Assembly (NCBI GenBank): GCA_945861705.1
Contig: CAMAVM010000012.1
Coordinates: 16,394 to 80,393, forward strand
DNA from: Methylomagnum ishizawai
GTDB taxonomy: Bacteria > Pseudomonadota > Gammaproteobacteria > Methylococcales > Methylomonadaceae
Direction: 5' to 3'
DNA length: 64,000 bases
Shown here: piece by piece, positions 20,955 through 30,321 of the stretch
Layout: each line of letters starts with the position of its first letter
How positions within the stretch are numbered: the stretch's first letter is position 1
Notes under the pieces: model-generated
What the model saw: only the letters and a program-made list of their open reading frames with translations
The model's database searches: none
What the model was told of the DNA's origin: nothing
Program-made: the position numbers and the translations under genes

Positions 20955-20989
20955 GCAGTACAGAAATGATTAAAATTCAAGTGAATAAC

Positions 20990-21372
20990 CAGCAAACTCA
21001 TTGTAACATAATGCGAAACTAATCAGGGTCGAGCAAGTCAAAATTGCACCTTTTCAGCAACAAAGCCAGTTACTTATGATGTTAATAGGATAGACCTTGC
21101 GGAATGAATGAAGTTCTTTAAGATTCATGCAAACAATCCGCATACAAAGCCCTTTCAAACCAAATAGAAAAACAAAAATTACCACTAAATTCCAGTTATG
21201 TGACGTGTTTCACAAACCTATTCATTAAGGTCTATACTGAAATGCAATCAAAGAAAAACTTGTTGAATTAGGTTGAGTGGACAATGCCGTTGAACAGAAT
21301 AGACCATCAGGTTATACAAGAGCAGCCATCAAAAACCTTGGAATTTACTCTCATGGAGCTGATGACGATGAG
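20990..21372 (+). repeat. Diverged copy 1 of the fimT promoter and 5' gene end
   Basis: This stretch matches 22160-22494 along its length with small indels. Shared runs include TCATTG.AACATAATGC.AAACTAATCAG, CAACAAAGCCAGTTA, TAGACCTTGC and GTGACGTGTTTCACAAAC, then the start ATGCCGTTGAA and a pilin-like leader. Copy 1 has about 30 extra bases after 21026. The two copies flank the HEPN-MNT pair as direct repeats. The stretch 20955-21283 holds no other gene. Confidence 0.8.
21199..21238 (+). promoter_or_regulatory. CRP/Vfr-like site and -10 box, copy 1
   Basis: TGTGA-CGTGTT-TCACA at 21199-21214 is a perfect match to the CRP consensus TGTGA-N6-TCACA. A TATACT -10 box follows at 21233-21238. The distance is a few bases short of the standard -41.5 class II layout. 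It would drive the pilin remnant and HEPN-MNT genes. Confidence 0.6.
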
Positions 21373-21409
21373 TTCAACTTTCAAATGCGTTTCCAATTAT
21401 GAATATTGA
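21284..21409 (+). pseudogene. Truncated prepilin (fimT-like) leader fragment
   Basis: A 41-codon frame begins MPLNRIDHQVIQEQP and goes on to EFTLMELMTM, clearly homologous to the start of the intact fimT product (MPLNQKDYQVMPEKP, then GFTLMELMVTL). The similarity stops after about 29 codons (near 21372). The Gly before the prepilin cleavage site (G20 in fimT) is Glu here, so processing would fail. Its TGA (21407-21409) overlaps the HEPN start at 21399, which may couple translation of the two. Confidence 0.75.
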
Positions 21410-21833
21410 CTATTTAACGCAACTTGCCACCCAGGATGGCGCACAATACGCGTGGTTAAGGCAAAGCCTGAATGATTACGAAATGGCTAATATATTGTTG
21501 GCGGCGAACAAATGGGATGGTGTTTGCTACCATGCCCAACAAGCGGTTGAAAAAGCGTTGAAGTTCCTGCTCAGTGATGCAGCCCAAGCCTTCAGTCATA
21601 CATATTCAGTCCATGCGCTTGCTAAAACCTGCAATGAAGCCCTTGCAACAAACCTGTTTGATGGTGAAATTATTGAATCGTATAAGGAATTAAGCCAATA
21701 CAGCACCATCGCCCGTTATCCGTTGGCTTCTGATGCCCCAGTTGATGTCATCACCAAAAAACAAGCCCTGTCAGCCATCGACACCTTAACCCAAACCTTG
21801 CTAATTATGGAGAGGGCTTATGAACGCAACTAA
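21399..21833 (+). CDS. HEPN-domain protein (HEPN-MNT toxin-antitoxin pair)
   Basis: A 144-residue all-helical protein with the HEPN hallmark CYHAQQAVEKALKFLL near residues 43-58 and the ARYPLASDAP segment near 104. HEPN proteins paired with a minimal nucleotidyltransferase act as toxins controlled by the partner. The classical RX4-6H ribonuclease motif is not evident, so catalytic activity is uncertain. There is no ribosome site before ATG 21399; the start lies inside the decayed pilin frame. It overlaps the MNT gene by 14 bases. Confidence 0.82.
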   Translation: MNIDYLTQLATQDGAQYAWLRQSLNDYEMANILLAANKWDGVCYHAQQAVEKALKFLLSDAAQAFSHTYSVHALAKTCNEALATNLFDGEIIESYKELSQYSTIARYPLASDAPVDVITKKQALSAIDTLTQTLLIMERAYERN

Positions 21834-22134
21834 CCTCATCCAGCAAGCCAGGTCAGTAAAATACGACAGCGTGTTAGCTTATCTTAATGTAGCATTCAAA
21901 GATTTCACCCATCCAGTATACTTGTTTGGCTCCTACGCAACAGGACGATTTCACGGTCACTCGGATGTCGATATTCTCATCATTGCACCCAATGCAATAT
22001 CAGCAAAAGTCTATCGTCAGGTCTGTGACAAAATGTCTGGCTTAGGGATGAATTATGACGTTCTTATAGCACCTTCCATCGAACGGTTAGATAGCAGCAT
22101 TGTTAACTCGCTACAAGCTATACACGAGCCTTAG
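21820..22134 (+). CDS. MNT-type nucleotidyltransferase (HEPN-MNT pair)
   Basis: A 104-residue minimal nucleotidyltransferase of the polymerase-beta superfamily. The active-site motif is FGSYATGRFHGHSDVDILI, with G37-S38 and metal-binding D49 and D51, all intact. In studied HEPN-MNT pairs this protein adds AMP to the HEPN partner and silences it. The start overlaps the HEPN gene. No terminator separates it from the second pilin promoter downstream, so read-through into fimT is possible. Confidence 0.85.
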   Translation: MNATNLIQQARSVKYDSVLAYLNVAFKDFTHPVYLFGSYATGRFHGHSDVDILIIAPNAISAKVYRQVCDKMSGLGMNYDVLIAPSIERLDSSIVNSLQAIHEP

Positions 22135-22159
22135 CAACATTATTCGACACACGGGTAAG

Positions 22160-22494
22160 CAGCAATCTCATTGCAACATAATGCAAAACTAATCAGCAAC
22201 AAAGCCAGTTAATTAGGTAGACCTTGCAGGATGATTAGAGTTCTTTATGTTAGATATAAACAAACCGCTTACAAAACCCTATCAAACAAAAAAAAGGGAA
22301 CGATTGCCACTAAATTGCAGAATTGTGACGTGTTTCACAAACGCCTGCATAGAGTCTATACTAATATGTAATCAAAGAAGAACGTGTTATATCAGGTTGA
22401 GTGAAATGCCGTTGAATCAAAAAGATTATCAGGTCATGCCAGAAAAACCATCAATGCAATTCGGATTCACATTGATGGAGTTGATGGTTACATT
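22160..22494 (+). repeat. Copy 2 of the pilin promoter repeat (attached to intact fimT)
   Basis: Direct repeat partner of 20990-21372, running from CAGCAATCTCATTGCAACAT through the CRP-like site and into the first 29 or so codons of fimT. This copy leads into a complete pilin gene and is presumably the ancestral one. Confidence 0.8.
22324..22362 (+). promoter_or_regulatory. CRP/Vfr-like site and -10 box of the minor pilin operon
   Basis: TGTGA-CGTGTT-TCACA (22324-22339) is identical over 16 bases to the site in copy 1, although the flanks have diverged. TATACT (22357-22362) follows. Vfr, the CRP homologue of Pseudomonas, controls type IV pilus functions, so cAMP-dependent control of this operon is plausible. 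No good -35 box is seen, as expected for an activator-dependent promoter. Confidence 0.65.
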
Positions 22495-22945
22495 GAGTAT
22501 TGCCGGCATCATGTTAAGCATAGCAATCCCCAGCTTTACCTCTACCATAAGAAGCAGCCGGATAACCACACAGGTTAACGAGTTTGTTACGTCAATAAAT
22601 TTTATACGTAGCGAAGCAGTTAAGCGCGGAATGCGGGTTTCAATGTGCAAAAGTAGTGATGGTGCTACTTGCGTCACAAGCGGCAACTGGGCGCAAGGCT
22701 GGATTGTTTTTACCAATCAAAATGAGGATGCAGATTATGACGGCGCACCCGAAACAATATTGAAAAGACAAGAAGCCGCACAGTCCCAGAATACAATAGT
22801 CGGAAACACGCTTGTTGACGACATTATCTCTTACATAGCGAGTGGTGAAATTGTTAGTTCGGGTTCGATTTTCTTTTGTGATGATCGCGTTGCCGAAGTG
22901 GGAAAAAATAGTAATCGCCACGACTACTGGTCGTTCGAGAATTGA
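22406..22945 (+). CDS. fimT: Type IV pilus minor pseudopilin, FimT/GspH family
   Basis: A 179-residue prepilin-like protein. The leader is cut by prepilin peptidase after G20 (QFG/FTLMELMVTL), with the conserved Glu at mature position 5 (E25), followed by the hydrophobic N-terminal helix. The GspH/FimT-type body follows (INFIRSEAVKRG). ATG 22406 is chosen because the upstream in-frame extension to 22247 runs through the promoter. It is the first gene of a fimT-pilV-pilW-pilX-pilY1-pilE operon, whose products prime pilus assembly. Confidence 0.86.
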   Translation: MPLNQKDYQVMPEKPSMQFGFTLMELMVTLSIAGIMLSIAIPSFTSTIRSSRITTQVNEFVTSINFIRSEAVKRGMRVSMCKSSDGATCVTSGNWAQGWIVFTNQNEDADYDGAPETILKRQEAAQSQNTIVGNTLVDDIISYIASGEIVSSGSIFFCDDRVAEVGKNSNRHDYWSFEN

Positions 22946-22960
22946 GACCTACCAGTGTAC

Positions 22961-23491
22961 ATGAAGATGAAAACCATCATGAAAACACACAGCGGTTTTA
23001 CCTTGATTGAAGTGTTGATTGCCGTAGTTCTACTCGCCGGGGCGTTGTTGGGCTTGGCAGGGCTACAAGCCAGAGTGCTGAGTAATAACCAAAGTGCTTA
23101 CAACCGCAGTCAAGCAACCCAATTAGCGTACGATATTGCAGACCGGATGCGAGCCAATACCAATAGCTCTGTTGCCGCCAACAATAACGATGCACTGGTT
23201 ATTTACACAACTTTTCTTCCAAGTACAGGTATACAAAAACCGAATTGTTTGACTACAACTGGGTGCAGCCAAGTCGATATGGCTAACAATGATCTTTTTG
23301 AGTGGAATCTTGCGCTCGCTACCCTGCCTAATGGACAAGGGTTAGTGTGTAAAGATAGTACACCTAAAGATGGTACTTCAACGGCAGCCTCTGCTTGCGA
23401 TGGAGCAGGTGCGGATTACCATATCAAAATATGGTGGGATGATGACAAAAGCGGCACAAACCAACTTTTTGTAGTGGGTTTTAAGTTATGA
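22961..23491 (+). CDS. pilV: Type IV pilus minor pilin PilV
   Basis: A 176-residue minor prepilin. With ATG 22961 the leader is MKMKTIMKTHSG, cut before FTLIEVLIAVVLLAGALLG; ATG 22979 would give a six-residue leader and is equally possible. The motif LAYDIADRMRANT is characteristic of PilV. It lies 15 bases after fimT and overlaps pilW by four bases. Confidence 0.86.
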   Translation: MKMKTIMKTHSGFTLIEVLIAVVLLAGALLGLAGLQARVLSNNQSAYNRSQATQLAYDIADRMRANTNSSVAANNNDALVIYTTFLPSTGIQKPNCLTTTGCSQVDMANNDLFEWNLALATLPNGQGLVCKDSTPKDGTSTAASACDGAGADYHIKIWWDDDKSGTNQLFVVGFKL

Positions 23492-24348
23492 GTACAGATT
23501 CGTTAAATAAAGATAGGGACAGCAGTATTGCTGCTGCAATGAACGCGATACACGAGCCGTTACGTCAATCTCCTATTTGCACCCCAAGTTACCGTCAACA
23601 ACAAGGTTTAACGCTGATTGAAATTATGATCGCACTCTTGATTGGGGCATTTTTATTGGGTGGGGTAATGGAGGTTTTTTTAAAAAGCAGACAAACCTAT
23701 AGAGTGCAGGAAGCACTATCCAGATTGCAAGAAAATGGTCGTTTTGCCATGGATTTTTTAGCCAGAGATATTCGTATGACGGATTATCGAGGCTGTCAGG
23801 GCGGCTCGCTCAGTACTCCCAAACAACCAAAATCTTTGTATGACACTGCCACTAGGTCAATTAATGAAGCCCTAGTGGGCGTGAATGGAGCGCCAAATGC
23901 CAATAGTGCTATGGATGCGCCAGATAGCATAACCGCCAGATGGTCAGAAAATGGGTGTAACGATGTTGTTACCACCCCCTGCTCGACAGATCTCAATCAA
24001 GAGTGTCCTGAGAACCGTGCTTTTGATATTAGAACTGCAAATTCGGTTCTAAATTTAGCAAGGAATACGGCAGCGTTAGTTGAAGGCGTAGAAAACATGC
24101 AAATCTTATATGGCGCAGATACAAACAACGATGGAGTTCCCAACTATTATGTGCCAGCAGGCACTGCGGGGCTTGATATGACGCAAGTGAACAGTGTGCG
24201 TGTTAGCCTCTTGTTAAGAACTATCGATGACAATATCGCTTCTGAGCCTTTGGCATATACATACAACGGCGCAACAACCACGCCAACAGACCGTAGAATC
24301 CGGCGGGTATTCACGTCCACAATTGCGCTACGTAACCGATTGCACTGA
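23488..24348 (+). CDS. pilW: Type IV pilus minor pilin PilW
   Basis: A 286-residue minor prepilin with cleavage after G40 (RQQQG/LTLIEIMIALLIG) and E45 at mature position 5. The segment ENGRFAMDFLARDIRMTDYRGC is typical of PilW. The 40-residue leader is much longer than usual; a start at Met 18 would give a 23-residue leader. ATG 23488 overlaps the pilV stop (ATGA). The mature C-terminal part ends with IRRVFTSTIALRN, as in other PilW. Confidence 0.87.
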   Translation: MSTDSLNKDRDSSIAAAMNAIHEPLRQSPICTPSYRQQQGLTLIEIMIALLIGAFLLGGVMEVFLKSRQTYRVQEALSRLQENGRFAMDFLARDIRMTDYRGCQGGSLSTPKQPKSLYDTATRSINEALVGVNGAPNANSAMDAPDSITARWSENGCNDVVTTPCSTDLNQECPENRAFDIRTANSVLNLARNTAALVEGVENMQILYGADTNNDGVPNYYVPAGTAGLDMTQVNSVRVSLLLRTIDDNIASEPLAYTYNGATTTPTDRRIRRVFTSTIALRNRLH

Positions 24349-24358
24349 GGTTGATTGT

Positions 24359-24955
24359 ATGACATCCAGACCTGTTTTATATAAATCTCAATCCGGTGTT
24401 GTTCTAGTTGTTGCTTTAATCATGTTGCTGTTATTGACATTGATAGGTACTGCCGGTATGCAGTCCACTTCGTTGGAAGAAAAAATGGCAGGTAATATGC
24501 GCGACAAAAACCTAGCCTTTCAAGCTGCCGAATCGGCTCTTAGCGAGGCTGAAGCCAGTCTATTTCCGGTTGCACCTGCCGTTCTGCCAAATTTTACGCC
24601 TGAAGGTACGGTTACGGTGACTGATCCTATCACGCATGTATCAACTGTCTATAATGGCTATTATTCTAAAGACTCAACCATACCAACCGCAGTCGTTACG
24701 GGTTCAACTACTAAACTGCAACTTGAGGAAGATAGTTTTTGGACAACAAATCCAGTGGCAACTTCTACGATTACCACATTAGGTAACGATGTTGCTGCTC
24801 CAAAATATATCATCCAAAAATTAGATACCGTCTGTTATAAGGAAGCTTGTCCATTAGCCAGTGACCGTTCAACGCCATATAGAATTACAGTTAGAGCCAC
24901 AGGCGGCAGTACTGTCACGGTGGTTATTGTTCAATCTGTTTTTACGACCGATTAA
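24359..24955 (+). CDS. pilX: Type IV pilus minor pilin PilX
   Basis: A 198-residue protein with the PilX start: short leader ending SQSG, then VVLVVALIMLLLLTLIGTAG and the conserved MQSTSLEEKMAGNMRDKNLAFQ region. Like other PilX proteins it lacks a Glu at mature position 5. The start is ATG 24359, ten bases after pilW, with GAGG at 24347-24350. A longer in-frame extension from 24227 lies inside pilW and is rejected. Confidence 0.87.
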   Translation: MTSRPVLYKSQSGVVLVVALIMLLLLTLIGTAGMQSTSLEEKMAGNMRDKNLAFQAAESALSEAEASLFPVAPAVLPNFTPEGTVTVTDPITHVSTVYNGYYSKDSTIPTAVVTGSTTKLQLEEDSFWTTNPVATSTITTLGNDVAAPKYIIQKLDTVCYKEACPLASDRSTPYRITVRATGGSTVTVVIVQSVFTTD

Positions 24956-25008
24956 ATACCCTTAGGGTCTTATAAATTAATTAAGCTGCTCATAGCGGGA
25001 GTTTTAAG

Positions 25009-28000
25009 GTGAATCAATTCAAATCAATAAAATCATACAGTCGCTTTGGTCTGTTAAGTGGGTTTTTAATTGCCGTCGCTATTGTAACTAAGATAGCGGT
25101 TGCGGGAGATATTGCAACGACCCCATTGTTTATAGGACAGGCAGTAGCACCTAAAGCAATGATAAATATGTCCAAGGATCACCAGCTTTTCTTTAAAGCT
25201 TATGATGATTATTCCGACTTAGATGATGATGACGTTCCTGAAACCACGTACAAGCACAGCTTTAATTATTACGGCTATTTTGATAGTACAAAATGTTATA
25301 AATACAGCAGTAACCGTTTTGAACCCGAAAGTATTTCTTCGGACAAATATTGTGATGATGACCAATGGAGCGGAAATTTTTTAAATTGGGCAACCATGTC
25401 GCGCATGGATGTCATTCGTAAAATACTGTATGGCGGTCTGCGTTCTACAGATGACGCTAATTTAACGGTATTAGAGCGTGCTTTCCTTCCTACTGATGCC
25501 CATAGTTGGGCCAAGTTTTATAACGGTAGCGATTTAGACAAGCTGACTCCCTTTAACTACACTGAAGGACTTACCTTATGTAATACAACAGATGCTTCTT
25601 CTGGGACATCTCAATCAGTTACCAACGCACCGCTAATTCGCGTTGCCAAAGGCAATTTTGCTTTATGGGCAGCTAATGAACGTTGGCAGTGCAAGTGGGG
25701 TGAGGGCGATAATGGCAATAACGCTACCCTATCGGGGATAAATGCCAGTAGCACTGCGCCATCGCAATCAGGCAATAATGAATATATTGCACGAGTTCAA
25801 GCTTGTGTTAGCACCGCCTTGGAAGGCAACGAAAAATGTAAAAATTACGCGAGTTCTGACTTAAAACCGATAGGTTTACTGCAAGAATACGGTGACGGTA
25901 ACAAGATGTACTTCGGACTCATGTCTGGTTCGTATCAAAACAACAAGGAAGGTGGCGTTTTAAGGAAAAATATCGGTACTTTTACAAATGAAATCAATGC
26001 TAATGGTACATTCACCGCGACCACTGGAATTATTAATGCCCTTAACAAACTCAAGATAGTTGGTTACCAATACGGTTCTGGCAATGGAATCTATAATAAC
26101 GCTCAATCTACTACTGGTGGCGGCGATGACTGTATTTGGGGTCTAAGTACCTTTACGTCCAGTAAATGTAGAAATTGGGGTAATCCACAAGCCGAGCTAT
26201 TACTGGAATCCCTGCGTTATTTGGCGGGTAAAAGTGCGACTCCTGCGTATAGCGCAACTGACACAGTTCTTAATTTAACGACAGCAAGTTTTGTAAATCC
26301 AATAACAACCGCCGAATCGTGTGCTTCACTGAATGTTATACAATTTAATGCTAGCACCACTTCTTATGATGCCGATGGTCTTGGGCTCGCTACCGATATT
26401 GGTTTGTCAAATTTGAGTGCTGCAACAGACGCAGTAGGGGCAGGAGAAATCTCAACTTCCAGTCCATTTTTTATAGGCGAAAATGGCACCGATAACAATC
26501 AATTGTGTACCGCCAAGACCGTCAGCCCTAGTGGTAGTAATACCTTGAGTAAACTGCTGGGGACATGCCCTGATGCGCCTCGGCTTTCGGGGTCTTACCA
26601 AATTGCAGGTCTGGCACATTATGCACACACTAATGATCTACGCTCGGATATTACAAAAAATCAATTGGTAAATCTTTACGGCATAGCGTTATCCCCAGCG
26701 TTGCCTAAAGTTGTTGTGCCAGTACCAGGTTCTAGTACCAAGAAAATTACTATACTACCGGCCTGTCGTAATTTAAGTACCGCACCCAATGCCGCCAATT
26801 GTGCCATTGTTGATTTTAAAATCATAAGTCAAGCGACAACCTCAACGACTGCAACAGGCAAACTCTACGTTAACTGGGAGGATTCCGAGCAAGGCGGCGA
26901 TTTTGATCAGGATCAATGGGGTACTATTACATACAGTATTACAGGGTCAAACGTAACGATAACCACGGATGCTATTGCCCAATCCACGCCTAACAAAATG
27001 GGTTTCGGCTATGTGGTCAATGGTACAAGCCAAGATGGTTTTCATGTTCATTCAGGGATCAATGGCTTTGCCTATACCGACCCCACGGGTGGAACGACCT
27101 GTACAAATTGCAATTTCGGTGATGCTGCAAGTGTTCGCACATATACCATTGGGACAGCTAACGCAAACAGCCTAGAGCAACCTTTGTTTTATGCGGCTAA
27201 ATGGGGTGGTTTTATTGACTCCAACAATAACAAAAAGCCAGATCTACAAAGTGAATGGGATGCCGAAAATAATACCACTGGAAATGCCGAACCTGATGGC
27301 ATCCCCGACAAATATTTTGCCGCTACTAATCCACTAAAATTGGAGACTTCATTAGCCACAGCGTTAACTAAAATTAGCCTCGGTGATGGTGCTGCATCCG
27401 CTGTTGCAACGAATTCCACCCAGTTAAATGCAGGTTCAATTGTTTATCAAGCTAAATTTAACCCTATAGACTGGAGTGGCGACGTAGAAGCCTTTGCGGT
27501 TAACACGAATACTGGTGCGCTTACCACAGACTGGAAAGTGTCCGACCCAGGTAAAATTCCTGGTTCTGATGTTCGTAATATTTTAACTTACAACCCTAGG
27601 AAAGCATTGGGTTCGCGCGGCATCCCTTTCCTTTGGGGACAGTTAACTTGCCCTGCTGCTAGCACATCTACACAGAAATGTACGAAGCCTGGGAGAAAGC
27701 CCAGTGATCCACGCAGATCGTGTAGTCCTGGTAGCAAAAATTGCGTTTGTGAAATATTAACTACTTCTATTCCCACTTGTATTGACACTAATGTTCAAAC
27801 CGATGGAAAATCACAACAGGATTACCTAAATAAATTGCCGCCAGCGACATCGTCCGATCTTAAAGGTCTTGACCGAGTTGACTGGTTACGTGGCGACCAA
27901 GAAAACGAGAAACTTAATAAAGATGATACTGATCTAAACCACATTTTTAGAAAACGGACGAAGCTATTGGGTGATGCCGTTAATTCTGATCCTGTTTTTG

Positions 28001-28218
28001 TGGGTACTGATGACTTTGGCTATGGTGCCTTGTCAGGAGTAGAGGGCAGCAGCTATACCGCTTTTCGAGCTAGCTCTGCCTATTTAAACCGCATACCTAC
28101 GCTTTACGTGGGTACCAATGATGGTATGTTGCACGGTTTTGATGGCAGAAAATCAACAGCTACTGTCACTTCAGGCGGGAGTGAGCTATTTGCGTACGTT
28201 CCCAACGCGAATGCCTGA
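25009..28218 (+). CDS. pilY1: PilY1, N-terminal part (gene split by frameshift)
   Basis: The 1069-residue product of the first reading frame of a PilY1-type pilus tip adhesin. It has a signal peptide (about residues 1-32, ending AVAG), then IATTPLFIGQAVAPKAMINMS, the usual PilY1 start. Asp-rich stretches (DLDDDDVPE; DSNNNKKPDLQSEWD) may bind calcium. The C-terminal propeller begins near LYVGTNDGMLHGFD. The frame stops at 28218 just after AYVPNA, while the next frame carries the rest. The start is GTG 25009 with GGGAG upstream. It is probably one gene with 28211-29764. Confidence 0.88.
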   Translation: MNQFKSIKSYSRFGLLSGFLIAVAIVTKIAVAGDIATTPLFIGQAVAPKAMINMSKDHQLFFKAYDDYSDLDDDDVPETTYKHSFNYYGYFDSTKCYKYSSNRFEPESISSDKYCDDDQWSGNFLNWATMSRMDVIRKILYGGLRSTDDANLTVLERAFLPTDAHSWAKFYNGSDLDKLTPFNYTEGLTLCNTTDASSGTSQSVTNAPLIRVAKGNFALWAANERWQCKWGEGDNGNNATLSGINASSTAPSQSGNNEYIARVQACVSTALEGNEKCKNYASSDLKPIGLLQEYGDGNKMYFGLMSGSYQNNKEGGVLRKNIGTFTNEINANGTFTATTGIINALNKLKIVGYQYGSGNGIYNNAQSTTGGGDDCIWGLSTFTSSKCRNWGNPQAELLLESLRYLAGKSATPAYSATDTVLNLTTASFVNPITTAESCASLNVIQFNASTTSYDADGLGLATDIGLSNLSAATDAVGAGEISTSSPFFIGENGTDNNQLCTAKTVSPSGSNTLSKLLGTCPDAPRLSGSYQIAGLAHYAHTNDLRSDITKNQLVNLYGIALSPALPKVVVPVPGSSTKKITILPACRNLSTAPNAANCAIVDFKIISQATTSTTATGKLYVNWEDSEQGGDFDQDQWGTITYSITGSNVTITTDAIAQSTPNKMGFGYVVNGTSQDGFHVHSGINGFAYTDPTGGTTCTNCNFGDAASVRTYTIGTANANSLEQPLFYAAKWGGFIDSNNNKKPDLQSEWDAENNTTGNAEPDGIPDKYFAATNPLKLETSLATALTKISLGDGAASAVATNSTQLNAGSIVYQAKFNPIDWSGDVEAFAVNTNTGALTTDWKVSDPGKIPGSDVRNILTYNPRKALGSRGIPFLWGQLTCPAASTSTQKCTKPGRKPSDPRRSCSPGSKNCVCEILTTSIPTCIDTNVQTDGKSQQDYLNKLPPATSSDLKGLDRVDWLRGDQENEKLNKDDTDLNHIFRKRTKLLGDAVNSDPVFVGTDDFGYGALSGVEGSSYTAFRASSAYLNRIPTLYVGTNDGMLHGFDGRKSTATVTSGGSELFAYVPNANA

Positions 28219-29764
28219 GTTAAGTAAGCTGACATCGCCTACTTATACCCATCAGTATTATGTCGATGGCACTTCTGCTTCAAGTGATGTGTATTATGAT
28301 TCGAGTTGGCACACCATGTTAGTCGGTGCTACAGGTGCAGGCGGTCGTGCGTTATTTGCGCTGGATGTTACTAGCCCACCTACCAGTGCTACTGAGTTTG
28401 CTACCTTTACACCTACCAGCGCATTGTGGGAGTTTACCGATACCGCGCCTCCCGTCGCTACTGATTGCAGCGCGTTTGGAGCAGGCAGTGCTAACTATGA
28501 TGCCAATGATCTGGGCTATACCCTGGCACAACCTTCGATAGTTAGAATGCAAAATGGCAGTTGGGTAGTCATTGCCGCTAACGGCTATAACAGCAATAAC
28601 GGCAGTGCTGTGTTGTTTATTCTTGACGCTAAAACCGGCTGTATTATCAAAAAAATTGATACCGGCGCGAAGCCTAGCACCCCAATACCACCTGGGCGGT
28701 CAGATAAAAATGGTCTGTCAACACCCATTGCTGTTGATGCCAATAATGATCTGAGTATAGATACTGTTTATGCAGGCGATTTATACGGCAATTTGTGGAA
28801 GTTTGATTTGTCAGGTACCGTTGCTAGCTGGAATATATCTGGCGGCAGCCCTATATTCGTGGCTTGTACAACAGCGGGTGCAAGTTGCCCAACAGCAAAT
28901 CGGCAGCCCATCACTAGCAAGCCTAACGTTGGTGCAGTACGGGCAGTAGGCTCTGATCAAGACGGTGTCGGTAGAATGGTGTACTTCGGTACAGGTAAGT
29001 TTTTTGAAACAGGTGACAACTTATTGCCTACTTTACCCGCACTACCACAGGTACAAACTTTTTACGGCCTATGGGATAGAGGCTCGACCATCACTGATCG
29101 CGCTTTGTTGCAAGATCAAACCATTGATTTTGAAGGTTTTGCCGATACAGATTGTGGAACGGCTTCTTGCCCTAAAACCATTAGGTCTGTTCGTGTAGTG
29201 TCAAAAACCACTGTTTGTTACGCTGCCACCACCGTTGGTTGCACAACAAGTAGCCCGTTAAAAAGCGGCTGGGCATTGAATTTACTCGTTAAACCTGGCA
29301 ATGTTGCCCAGGGTGAACGGGTCATCAGTCTACCTTTAGTACGTCGGGGCTTAGTAGTGTTTTCTACGGTAATCCCCAATCCTGACCCCTGTGGTGATGG
29401 TGGAGAATCACGCTTAATGGAAATTGATGCGCTAAGTGGTGGTGAAGCTGATGCAACGCCCTTTGATGTCACTGGCAATGGCGTAATTGATGATAAGGAT
29501 TTTATATTGATCAACGGCGTGAAACATAATGCGTCGGGTGTTAACCAAGGGATTGGTATTACTAAGCAACCAACAGTAATTGAATCTCCAACCGCATCCA
29601 TTGACTATAAATACAGTAGTGGCTCAAGTGCTGCTATGGGAACTGTTGTTGATAGAGGAGGTAGTGGCTGTGTAGGTACTACCTGTGACGATGATGATGA
29701 TGTCGGCGGAAGTACCGCTATTCCTGGCACACGCAGGTCATGGCGGCAATTGAATGCCTTGTAA
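28211..29764 (+). CDS. pilY1: PilY1, C-terminal propeller part (second frame)
   Basis: About 517 residues in the +1 frame continue the PilY1 propeller: MPELSKLTSPTYTHQYYVDG, WHTMLVGATGAGGRALFALDV, then a calcium-loop candidate DANNDLSID with YAGDLYGNLWKFD, and a second one, DVTGNGVIDDKD. Removing one A at 28210-28211 restores AYVPNAMPELSKL and joins the two parts into about 1,584 residues. The frame is open back to 28118, but that stretch only reads the upstream gene out of frame. It may be a real mutation, phase variation or a sequencing error. Confidence 0.85.
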   Translation: MPELSKLTSPTYTHQYYVDGTSASSDVYYDSSWHTMLVGATGAGGRALFALDVTSPPTSATEFATFTPTSALWEFTDTAPPVATDCSAFGAGSANYDANDLGYTLAQPSIVRMQNGSWVVIAANGYNSNNGSAVLFILDAKTGCIIKKIDTGAKPSTPIPPGRSDKNGLSTPIAVDANNDLSIDTVYAGDLYGNLWKFDLSGTVASWNISGGSPIFVACTTAGASCPTANRQPITSKPNVGAVRAVGSDQDGVGRMVYFGTGKFFETGDNLLPTLPALPQVQTFYGLWDRGSTITDRALLQDQTIDFEGFADTDCGTASCPKTIRSVRVVSKTTVCYAATTVGCTTSSPLKSGWALNLLVKPGNVAQGERVISLPLVRRGLVVFSTVIPNPDPCGDGGESRLMEIDALSGGEADATPFDVTGNGVIDDKDFILINGVKHNASGVNQGIGITKQPTVIESPTASIDYKYSSGSSAAMGTVVDRGGSGCVGTTCDDDDDVGGSTAIPGTRRSWRQLNAL

Positions 29765-29783
29765 TTGGTAAGAGACGAGACAA

Positions 29784-29810
29784 GCAGGTGAGCAAACGGT
29801 GCTTGCCTGC
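29784..29810 (+). other. Hairpin between pilY1 and pilE
   Basis: GCAGGTGAGCA (29784-29794) pairs over 11 positions, two of them G-T, with TGCTTGCCTGC (29800-29810) around AACGG. No T-run follows, so a role in mRNA processing or stability, separating pilE from the long pilY1 message, is more likely than termination. Confidence 0.5.
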
Positions 29811-29853
29811 GTAAACTGAATAACATATCGCACTAATTAGCGTAGAATGAATT

Positions 29854-30321
29854 ATGAGACAAACGCAATCAGGTTTTACGTTAATAGAACTGATGATATG
29901 TGTGGCAATAATCGGTATTTTGACTGCTATTGCCTTACCTAGTTATCAGGAAAGTGTGAGAAAGTCACGCAGAGCGGATGCAAAAGCCGCTTTGCTGGGT
30001 TTAGTCAATGCTATGGAGCGGCATTTTACGGAAATCAATACCTATTGCAATGCGGGAGGAACAGGCGGAGGAGACTCTTGTGGTACGGGTTCTATCAATG
30101 ATACAGGAACTCCCTCTTCCTCTGTTTACACGGTGGACACTGGCACGGCTACGTATTATGACTTAACAATCAATGCCGTAGATGCCAGCACCTACACCTT
30201 ATGGGCTGCACCAAAAAGCGCTCAGGCCAGTGATAAATGCGGTACGTTGACGTTGACACATTTGGGTGCTAAGGATGTTACAGCGCAAACATCCGGTGTA
30301 ACCAAGGCTGATTGCTGGTAG
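29854..30321 (+). CDS. pilE: Type IV pilus minor pilin PilE
   Basis: A 155-residue prepilin with a seven-residue leader cut at QSG/FTLIELMICVAIIGILTAIA and Glu at mature position 5 (E12). The following SYQESVRKSRRADAKAALL is characteristic of PilE minor pilins. Cysteines near the end (DKCG ... ADCW) give the usual C-terminal disulfide loop. It closes the operon, 89 bases after pilY1, and a terminator follows. Confidence 0.88.
   Translation: MRQTQSGFTLIELMICVAIIGILTAIALPSYQESVRKSRRADAKAALLGLVNAMERHFTEINTYCNAGGTGGGDSCGTGSINDTGTPSSSVYTVDTGTATYYDLTINAVDASTYTLWAAPKSAQASDKCGTLTLTHLGAKDVTAQTSGVTKADCW

What the first reader, a model, noticed from the sequence alone, without database searches (positions are those of the whole stretch)
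20990..22494. HEPN-MNT module lodged between two diverged copies of a pilin promoter and pilin 5' end
Two stretches of about 335-385 bases (20990-21372 and 22160-22494) match over promoter, leader and the first 29 pilin codons. The second runs into an intact fimT; the first is cut off, and the HEPN gene begins 27 bases after the similarity ends. The simplest reading is that a fimT-like copy was duplicated and most of it replaced by the HEPN-MNT pair, placing the toxin-antitoxin under a pilus promoter.
Basis: partly seen in the sequence, partly recalled or inferred. Interest (0 to 1): 0.72.

Follow-up and report, generated by a model that had tools for sequence, protein, structure and literature searches.

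The report
Antitoxin fused onto a minor pilin
In relatives of this bacterium a predicted toxin-antitoxin gene pair sits inside the operon for minor pilus proteins, with the antitoxin fused in frame to the front of the pilus protein PilW; this window carries remains of that arrangement, likely split apart by a duplication and two deletions, and the fusion would make the pilus genes hard to lose.

Summary
The duplicated segments are real: 20986-21373 and 22156-22498, 78% identical over 340 columns, score 309 against a shuffle maximum of 62. The explanation offered is half right. HEPN-MNT did not replace a fimT body: the truncated fimT runs into the last codons of pilV, and HEPN starts on that pilV stop (ATGA), as in five relatives with HEPN, or its stub, behind intact pilV. 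In 8 of 10 HEPN-bearing family genomes the module lies in the minor-pilin operon. In five genomes MNT is fused in frame to PilW, and 32 proteins of a large set carry MNT on a prepilin, 31 on PilW and one on PilV. The window's PilW leader is a remnant of such a fusion (score 79, shuffle maximum 38); its free MNT nests among fused ones. Of 100 PilW N-termini read, 5 carry intact MNT and 9 carry HEPN or MNT remnants. Best reading: tandem duplication of promoter-fimT-pilV-HEPN-MNT, then complementary deletions. That the antitoxin works as a PilD-released leader that makes the operon addictive is inferred and untested. I found no report of this fusion in the papers searched.

The parts
20986..21283 (+). 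Copy 1 of the minor-pilin promoter and leader; TGTGA-N6-TCACA box at 21199-21214, TATACT at 21233-21238
   Evidence: alignment to copy 2; box; promoter-like match (7 such matches in the region against 4.3 in shuffles)
21284..21409 (+). fimT remnant: 41-codon open frame, homologous to fimT for about 29 codons, with Glu where FimT has the prepilin Gly; stops just past the HEPN start
21364..21402 (+). pilV 3' remnant (DDEFNFQMRFQL*), stop overlaps the HEPN start as ATGA
21399..21833 (+). HEPN gene, predicted toxin, PF05168
21820..22134 (+). MNT gene, predicted antitoxin, free here; overlaps HEPN by 14 bases
22156..22405 (+). Copy 2 of the promoter and leader; same box at 22324-22339, TATACT at 22357-22362
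22406..22945 (+). intact fimT
   Evidence: GspH, N_methyl
22955..23491 (+). intact pilV; stop overlaps pilW start as ATGA
23488..23604 (+). pilW leader, 39 codons; residues 11-39 are a remnant of an MNT C-terminus plus linker
23488..24348 (+). pilW
   Evidence: PilW, N_methyl
24359..30321 (+). rest of the operon: pilX, pilY1 in two overlapping frames, pilE-like pilin
   Evidence: pilX and pilY1 named by order and similarity to relatives

Best explanation
The predicted toxin-antitoxin pair HEPN-MNT is likely a long-standing resident of the type IV minor-pilin operon in this family, lodged at the pilV-pilW junction with MNT fused in frame to PilW as in five relatives, and the window likely shows a derived state made by tandem duplication of promoter-fimT-pilV-HEPN-MNT followed by complementary deletions. 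Copy 1 lost the bulk of fimT and pilV, leaving their outer codons in front of HEPN-MNT; copy 2 lost HEPN-MNT except for an MNT 3' remnant that is now the leader of PilW. Shown by sequence: the two promoter copies, the pilV and MNT remnants, the ATGA overlaps, the fusions and remnants in relatives. Inferred: the history and order of events. Inferred and untested: in the fused state the operon reads pilV, then toxin, then antitoxin::prepilin as one translational relay; prepilin peptidase PilD would cut after the glycine and free the MNT leader, which would neutralise HEPN by nucleotidylation; loss or swapping of pilW would remove the antitoxin, so the module would make the minor-pilin operon addictive. 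The duplication in the window would have let the two functions part without loss of either.
For: pilV remnant before HEPN and ATGA overlap as in relatives. HEPN within the minor-pilin operon in 8 of 10 family genomes with a HEPN match, 237 searched. MNT::PilW in frame in G008, G157, G176, G207 and G162; in G176 and G157 no ATG, GTG or TTG lies between MNT codon 87 and the prepilin Gly. 32 fusion proteins from two searches, 31 PilW and one PilV; all 32 have the prepilin motif in frame, 30 keep GSx10DxD. Window PilW leader aligns to MNT C-terminus plus linker, best 79 against 38 in 300 shuffles. Window MNT sits in a 97/96-supported set with six fused MNTs. 9 of 100 PilW leaders are HEPN or MNT remnants; G149 has the window's pattern. 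G204 keeps a pilW remnant behind its MNT upstream of fimT. Two-domain model of the fusion.
Against: No bench data on either gene. HEPN matched in only 10 of 237 family genomes and in none of the seven other genomes of the genus. Free HEPN-MNT away from fimT-pilW exists (G116, G017, L004), as does free MNT (G194). HEPN is lost or truncated while MNT stays fused in G162, G207 and G022, so the fusion does not need the toxin now. 16 of 32 fusions miss p <= 0.01 against the window leader (the nearer ones hit), and the DNA match of the window's own MNT end to its pilW leader is modest: 35 against a shuffle maximum of 36 in 2000, p 0.001. No prepilin peptidase domain in the window's 92% complete bin. 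Window HEPN departs from three near-invariant positions, so it may be weakened.
Confidence: 0.7

Rival explanations
1. One reading: a fimT-like copy was duplicated and an incoming HEPN-MNT pair replaced most of it, capturing a pilus promoter.
For: Duplicated promoter and fimT 5' end flank the module.
Against: pilV 3' remnant and ATGA overlap before HEPN; MNT remnant in the PilW leader; window MNT nests among fused MNTs.
Confidence: 0.06
2. Neutral ratchet: the module was lodged at the pilV-pilW junction by chance, MNT became the leader by loss of its stop, and it stays only because PilW has no other start; no link to pilus function or addiction.
For: HEPN lost or truncated while MNT::prepilin stays in G162, G207 and G022; MNT core degenerate in G024; stubs of HEPN or MNT serve as leaders.
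Against: 30 of 32 fusions keep the nucleotidyltransferase motif and the MNT part aligns over nearly its whole length; the module recurs at pilin genes in three slots.
Confidence: 0.35
3. The in-frame continuity is incidental: PilW is translated from an internal start and MNT is a separate protein that is only cotranscribed.
For: 8 of 30 linkers hold a Met; G176 and G157 have an in-frame GTG 29 codons before the prepilin Gly, inside MNT.
Against: 22 of 30 linkers hold no Met (two fusions with shortened MNT not counted); no stop intervenes in any of the 32; pilV-ATGA-pilW coupling without the module is seen in G001 and G002, so the module sits in the coupling point.
Confidence: 0.2
4. The second operon copy in the window came from a related strain by recombination, not by duplication in place, and so did the remnant-bearing pilW.
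For: The copies differ at 22% of columns; G001 carries three minor-pilin operons; the bin has ComEC.
Against: The two copies are closer to each other than to G006, which fits an old duplication as well as a near donor.
Confidence: 0.25

Closest known systems
HEPN-MNT (HepT-MntA, type VII) toxin-antitoxin systems, e.g. Shewanella oneidensis SO_3166/SO_3165 and the Legionella pair of PMC11586414
   Different: HEPN lacks RX4HXY; module sits in a pilus operon; MNT is fused to a prepilin in relatives
Type IVa minor-pilin operon fimT-pilV-pilW-pilX-pilY1-pilE beside moaA
   Same: Same gene order in the window and in most same-genus relatives examined
   Different: Carries HEPN-MNT or its remnants; in fusions the PilW leader before the Gly is 116-165 residues (91 in two), against 17 or fewer in 76 of the 86 PilW without such similarity
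HEPN families fused to MNT described in the HEPN survey PMC3710099 (passages seen)
   Same: MNT and HEPN domains fused to other parts are known there
   Different: The passages seen name no pilin fusion; the word-start search for 'pil' gave 0 in that paper

Membership tests
HEPN-MNT toxin-antitoxin module | HEPN domain gene next to an MNT gene | tested here: met
   PF05168 and PF01909 over cut-off, genes overlap by 14 bases
HEPN-MNT toxin-antitoxin module | MNT nucleotidyltransferase motif GSx10DxD | tested here: met
   window GSYATGRFHGHSDVD; 30 of 32 fusions
HEPN-MNT toxin-antitoxin module | HEPN toxic, neutralised by MNT | not testable with these tools
   needs expression tests
HepT (RX4HXY) subfamily | RX4HXY motif in HEPN | tested here: not met
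   window has RYPLASD; R106 is invariant in the 32-row alignment and no His stands 4-6 residues on in the window. PMC3710099 lists PF05168 HEPN with D in place of H in several cases
PF05168 (HEPN-T) subfamily | profile match and fold | tested here: met
Type IV prepilin PilW, for the MNT::PilW fusions | prepilin cleavage motif followed by the hydrophobic helix | tested here: met
   motif in 32 of 32 fusions, one of them PilV; helix 119-172 after Gly116 in the model of P0001
Type IV prepilin PilW, for the MNT::PilW fusions | pilin fold of the mature part | tested here: met
Type IV prepilin PilW, for the MNT::PilW fusions | cleaved by a prepilin peptidase | tested here: inconclusive
   site present; no PF06750 or PF01478 match in the window's 92% complete bin; not searched in genomes with fusions

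The most novel reading that the evidence does not exclude
A toxin-antitoxin system wired into pilus assembly: the antitoxin exists only as the leader of the PilW prepilin and is set free when prepilin peptidase processes the pilin, so cells stay alive only while they keep making and processing minor pilins. The duplication in the window, and the remnants in eight other genomes, record lineages escaping this addiction.
Probability: 0.3. Interest if true: 0.92.

Novelty: new variant of a known kind. Interest (0 to 1): 0.78.

Why it matters
A chromosomal toxin-antitoxin pair is stitched into a surface-structure operon, with the antitoxin joined to an unrelated structural protein, and relatives show a graded series: intact fusion, toxin lost, antitoxin degenerate, leader stub, relocated copy. 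That would make the long-standing question whether such chromosomal modules protect the genes around them testable at one locus. It also gives an unusually long prepilin leader that holds an enzyme domain, and a possible link between pilus assembly and growth control in methanotrophs.

Tried and rejected
Replacement of fimT by an inserted module: rejected (pilV and MNT remnants). Chance similarity of the two segments: rejected. Plasmid or phage carriage: no protein match in either collection; this speaks for those collections only. Wider spread: in 369 genomes drawn from the class, 6 matched; two are the window and G017, four are remote hits of 32-38% identity whose neighbourhood I did not study. 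MNT hits dropped from counts: G213, an MNT of another type, and G130, a 34% match with no pilin hit nearby. PADLOC gave no HEPN hit and candidate-system hits for MNT.

Flawed steps: searches were translated in wrong frames; corrected. The PilX control leader was in a wrong frame and counts for nothing; the usable control leaders there are FimT (0 of 32), G006 (0 of 32) and G007 (1 of 32). One search missed 14 loci whose match lay on the minus strand; redone. In one search two fusions with shortened MNT (P0031, P0032) had an empty linker slice and were printed as without Met; they are left out (22 of 30, not 24 of 32). In the tree the P rows came from length-filtered searches, so the ratio of fused to free means nothing; only nesting is used. 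Four P rows were left out of it (P0001, P0010, P0012, P0017, same as or close to G176, G157, G008, G022). The nine loci were picked partly for long frames, so the share of remnants is not an unbiased rate. The G149 and G065 leaders were noticed first and tested after.

Papers: searches. Passages of PMC3710099 and PMC6393860, outline with abstract and section 7 of PMC11586414; PMC7641770 and the rest were seen in listings only. None of what I saw reports an MNT-pilin fusion or HEPN-MNT in a minor-pilin operon.

Full report
Observation. Segments 20986-21373 and 22156-22498 align at 78% identity over 340 columns, score 309 against a maximum of 62 in 500 shuffles (first view). Both hold a TGTGA-N6-TCACA box with the same spacer (21199-21214 and 22324-22339) and a TATACT element; a box of that form also stands in the matching promoters of G006, G005 and G007. 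The 2.45 Mb bin has 11 such perfect sites, two of them here, and two Crp-type helix-turn-helix matches. That the box binds a CRP/Vfr-type regulator is recalled and inferred. The two copies are closer to each other than to G006 (76% against 68% and 69%).

What joins the truncated fimT to HEPN. After about 29 fimT codons the sequence 21364-21402 reads, in another frame, DDEFNFQMRFQL*. PilV proteins of relatives end alike (DPNFQTSFQL*, NPSFQTSFRL*, DPSFQMSLGL*). Against 15 pilV 3' ends from 13 genomes, right-anchored identity is 18 to 30 of 40; p is 0.001-0.002 in 13 of 15, 0.007 for the window's own pilV and 0.012 for G007; local scores reach p <= 0.005 in 13 of 15, with G157 0.026 and G007 0.40. 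The stop of this remnant overlaps the HEPN start as ATGA. In G008, G157, G176, G207 and G211, where HEPN or its stub follows pilV, the same overlap is seen. So HEPN most likely reached this place behind pilV, and a deletion removed the rest of fimT and pilV.

Where the module lives in relatives. A HEPN search of 237 family genomes matched 10. Eight lie in the minor-pilin operon: between pilV and pilW in G008, G157, G176, G207 (HEPN truncated) and G211 (a stub of about 27 residues); upstream of fimT in the window, G204 (HEPN frameshifted) and G210. G017 has it about 2 kb from another pilin locus; G116 has it elsewhere. L004, a named MAG, has it with no pilin hit nearby. None of the seven other genomes of the genus matched. 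An MNT search matched 14 of 237; two are other MNT types and are dropped. New ones: G162 (no HEPN; MNT::PilW starts on the pilV stop), G022 (fimT stub, HEPN C-terminal stub, MNT fused to PilV) and G194 (free MNT, no HEPN match). HEPN proteins of this type form a close set: 58 hits in 5.8 billion proteins, 57 at 60-96% identity, then one at 34%.

The window as a descendant. PilW here has a 39-residue leader, MSTDSLNKDRDSSIAAAMNAIHEPLRQSPICTPSYRQQQ. Residues 11-39 align to the MNT end and linker of P0029 (score 79, maximum 38 in 300 shuffles) and P0025 (75, maximum 36); 16 of 32 fusions reach p <= 0.01 and 16 do not; control leaders gave 0 of 32 (FimT), 0 of 32 (G006) and 1 of 32 (G007), and a PilX control was in a wrong frame. 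The window MNT falls in a set with six fused MNTs (97/96 support). In DNA the MNT end and the pilW leader align around ATACACGAGCC (score 35, p 0.001, shuffle maximum 36 of 2000), with a one-base difference just where MNT now stops.

Remnants elsewhere. Of 102 PilW N-termini collected (30 best matches, listed hits that reach the N-terminus, and loci fetched for HEPN, MNT or long frames), 100 could be read. Fourteen resemble HEPN or MNT beyond 30 shuffles each: five intact fusions (G008, G157, G162, G176, G207) and nine remnants (window, G006, G211, G149, G065, G024, G084, G093, G094). A second G093 gene falls just short. Of the other 86, 76 have longest possible leaders of 17 residues or fewer. 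The G006 leader resembles the HEPN start (54, p 0.0005). G149 repeats the window's pattern, a HEPN-like start (weak by itself, 34) plus an MNT end (141). G204 carries a pilW 5' remnant behind its MNT (59 against 38 in 200 shuffles), so there too the module seems to have moved with a piece of pilW.

Model. Ancestor: promoter-fimT-pilV-HEPN-MNT::pilW. Step 1, tandem duplication from near the moaA start to the MNT end, which also cut MNT from pilW in copy 1. Step 2, deletion in copy 1 from fimT codon ~29 to the pilV end. Step 3, in-frame deletion in copy 2 of HEPN and most of MNT. The order is inferred. Tandem fimT (G002) and tandem operons (G001) show that such duplications occur in the genus.

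Function. HEPN has the PF05168 domain and fold with RYPLASD where HepT proteins have RX4HXY; three near-invariant positions differ in the window, so the window's toxin may be weakened. MNT antitoxins nucleotidylate their HEPN partners (start of the abstract of PMC7641770 in the listing; abstract of PMC11586414). Addiction of the operon through the fused antitoxin is the mechanism I prefer; it is untested, and a neutral ratchet explains much of the same evidence, above all the three genomes where MNT stays fused with HEPN lost or truncated. The window's bin shows no prepilin peptidase domain, a gap or a loss I cannot tell apart; it has ComEC.

Novelty. HEPN-MNT modules and minor-pilin operons are known; I saw no report of the antitoxin-prepilin fusion or its remnants in the papers I could search.

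Noticed in passing
window 25009-28218 and 28118-29764: pilY1 is read in two overlapping frames, which suggests a frameshift (real or from assembly).
   Followed up: no
linkers of P0012, P0013, P0015, P0016, P0019, P0020, P0022 and G207 (L059): Several MNT::PilW linkers share a repeated motif like SATAPCVALPPASMQS, twice in P0015, as if a DNA repeat were translated in frame.
   Followed up: no
L044 and L045 (G001): One same-genus genome carries three minor-pilin operons, two of them in tandem.
   Followed up: partly
window 21594-21617 (HEPN residues 66-73): The window HEPN reads SHTYSVHA where most relatives, and the 96% identical P0033, read RHTHSVHE; three near-invariant positions differ.
   Followed up: partly
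G000 bin, contigs C1, C4, C9 and C31: Several of the other perfect TGTGA-N6-TCACA sites lie close together or share similar spacers.
   Followed up: no
L126 (G024): A PilW leader holds an MNT-like stretch without the catalytic motif, a degenerate antitoxin still used as leader frame.
   Followed up: partly
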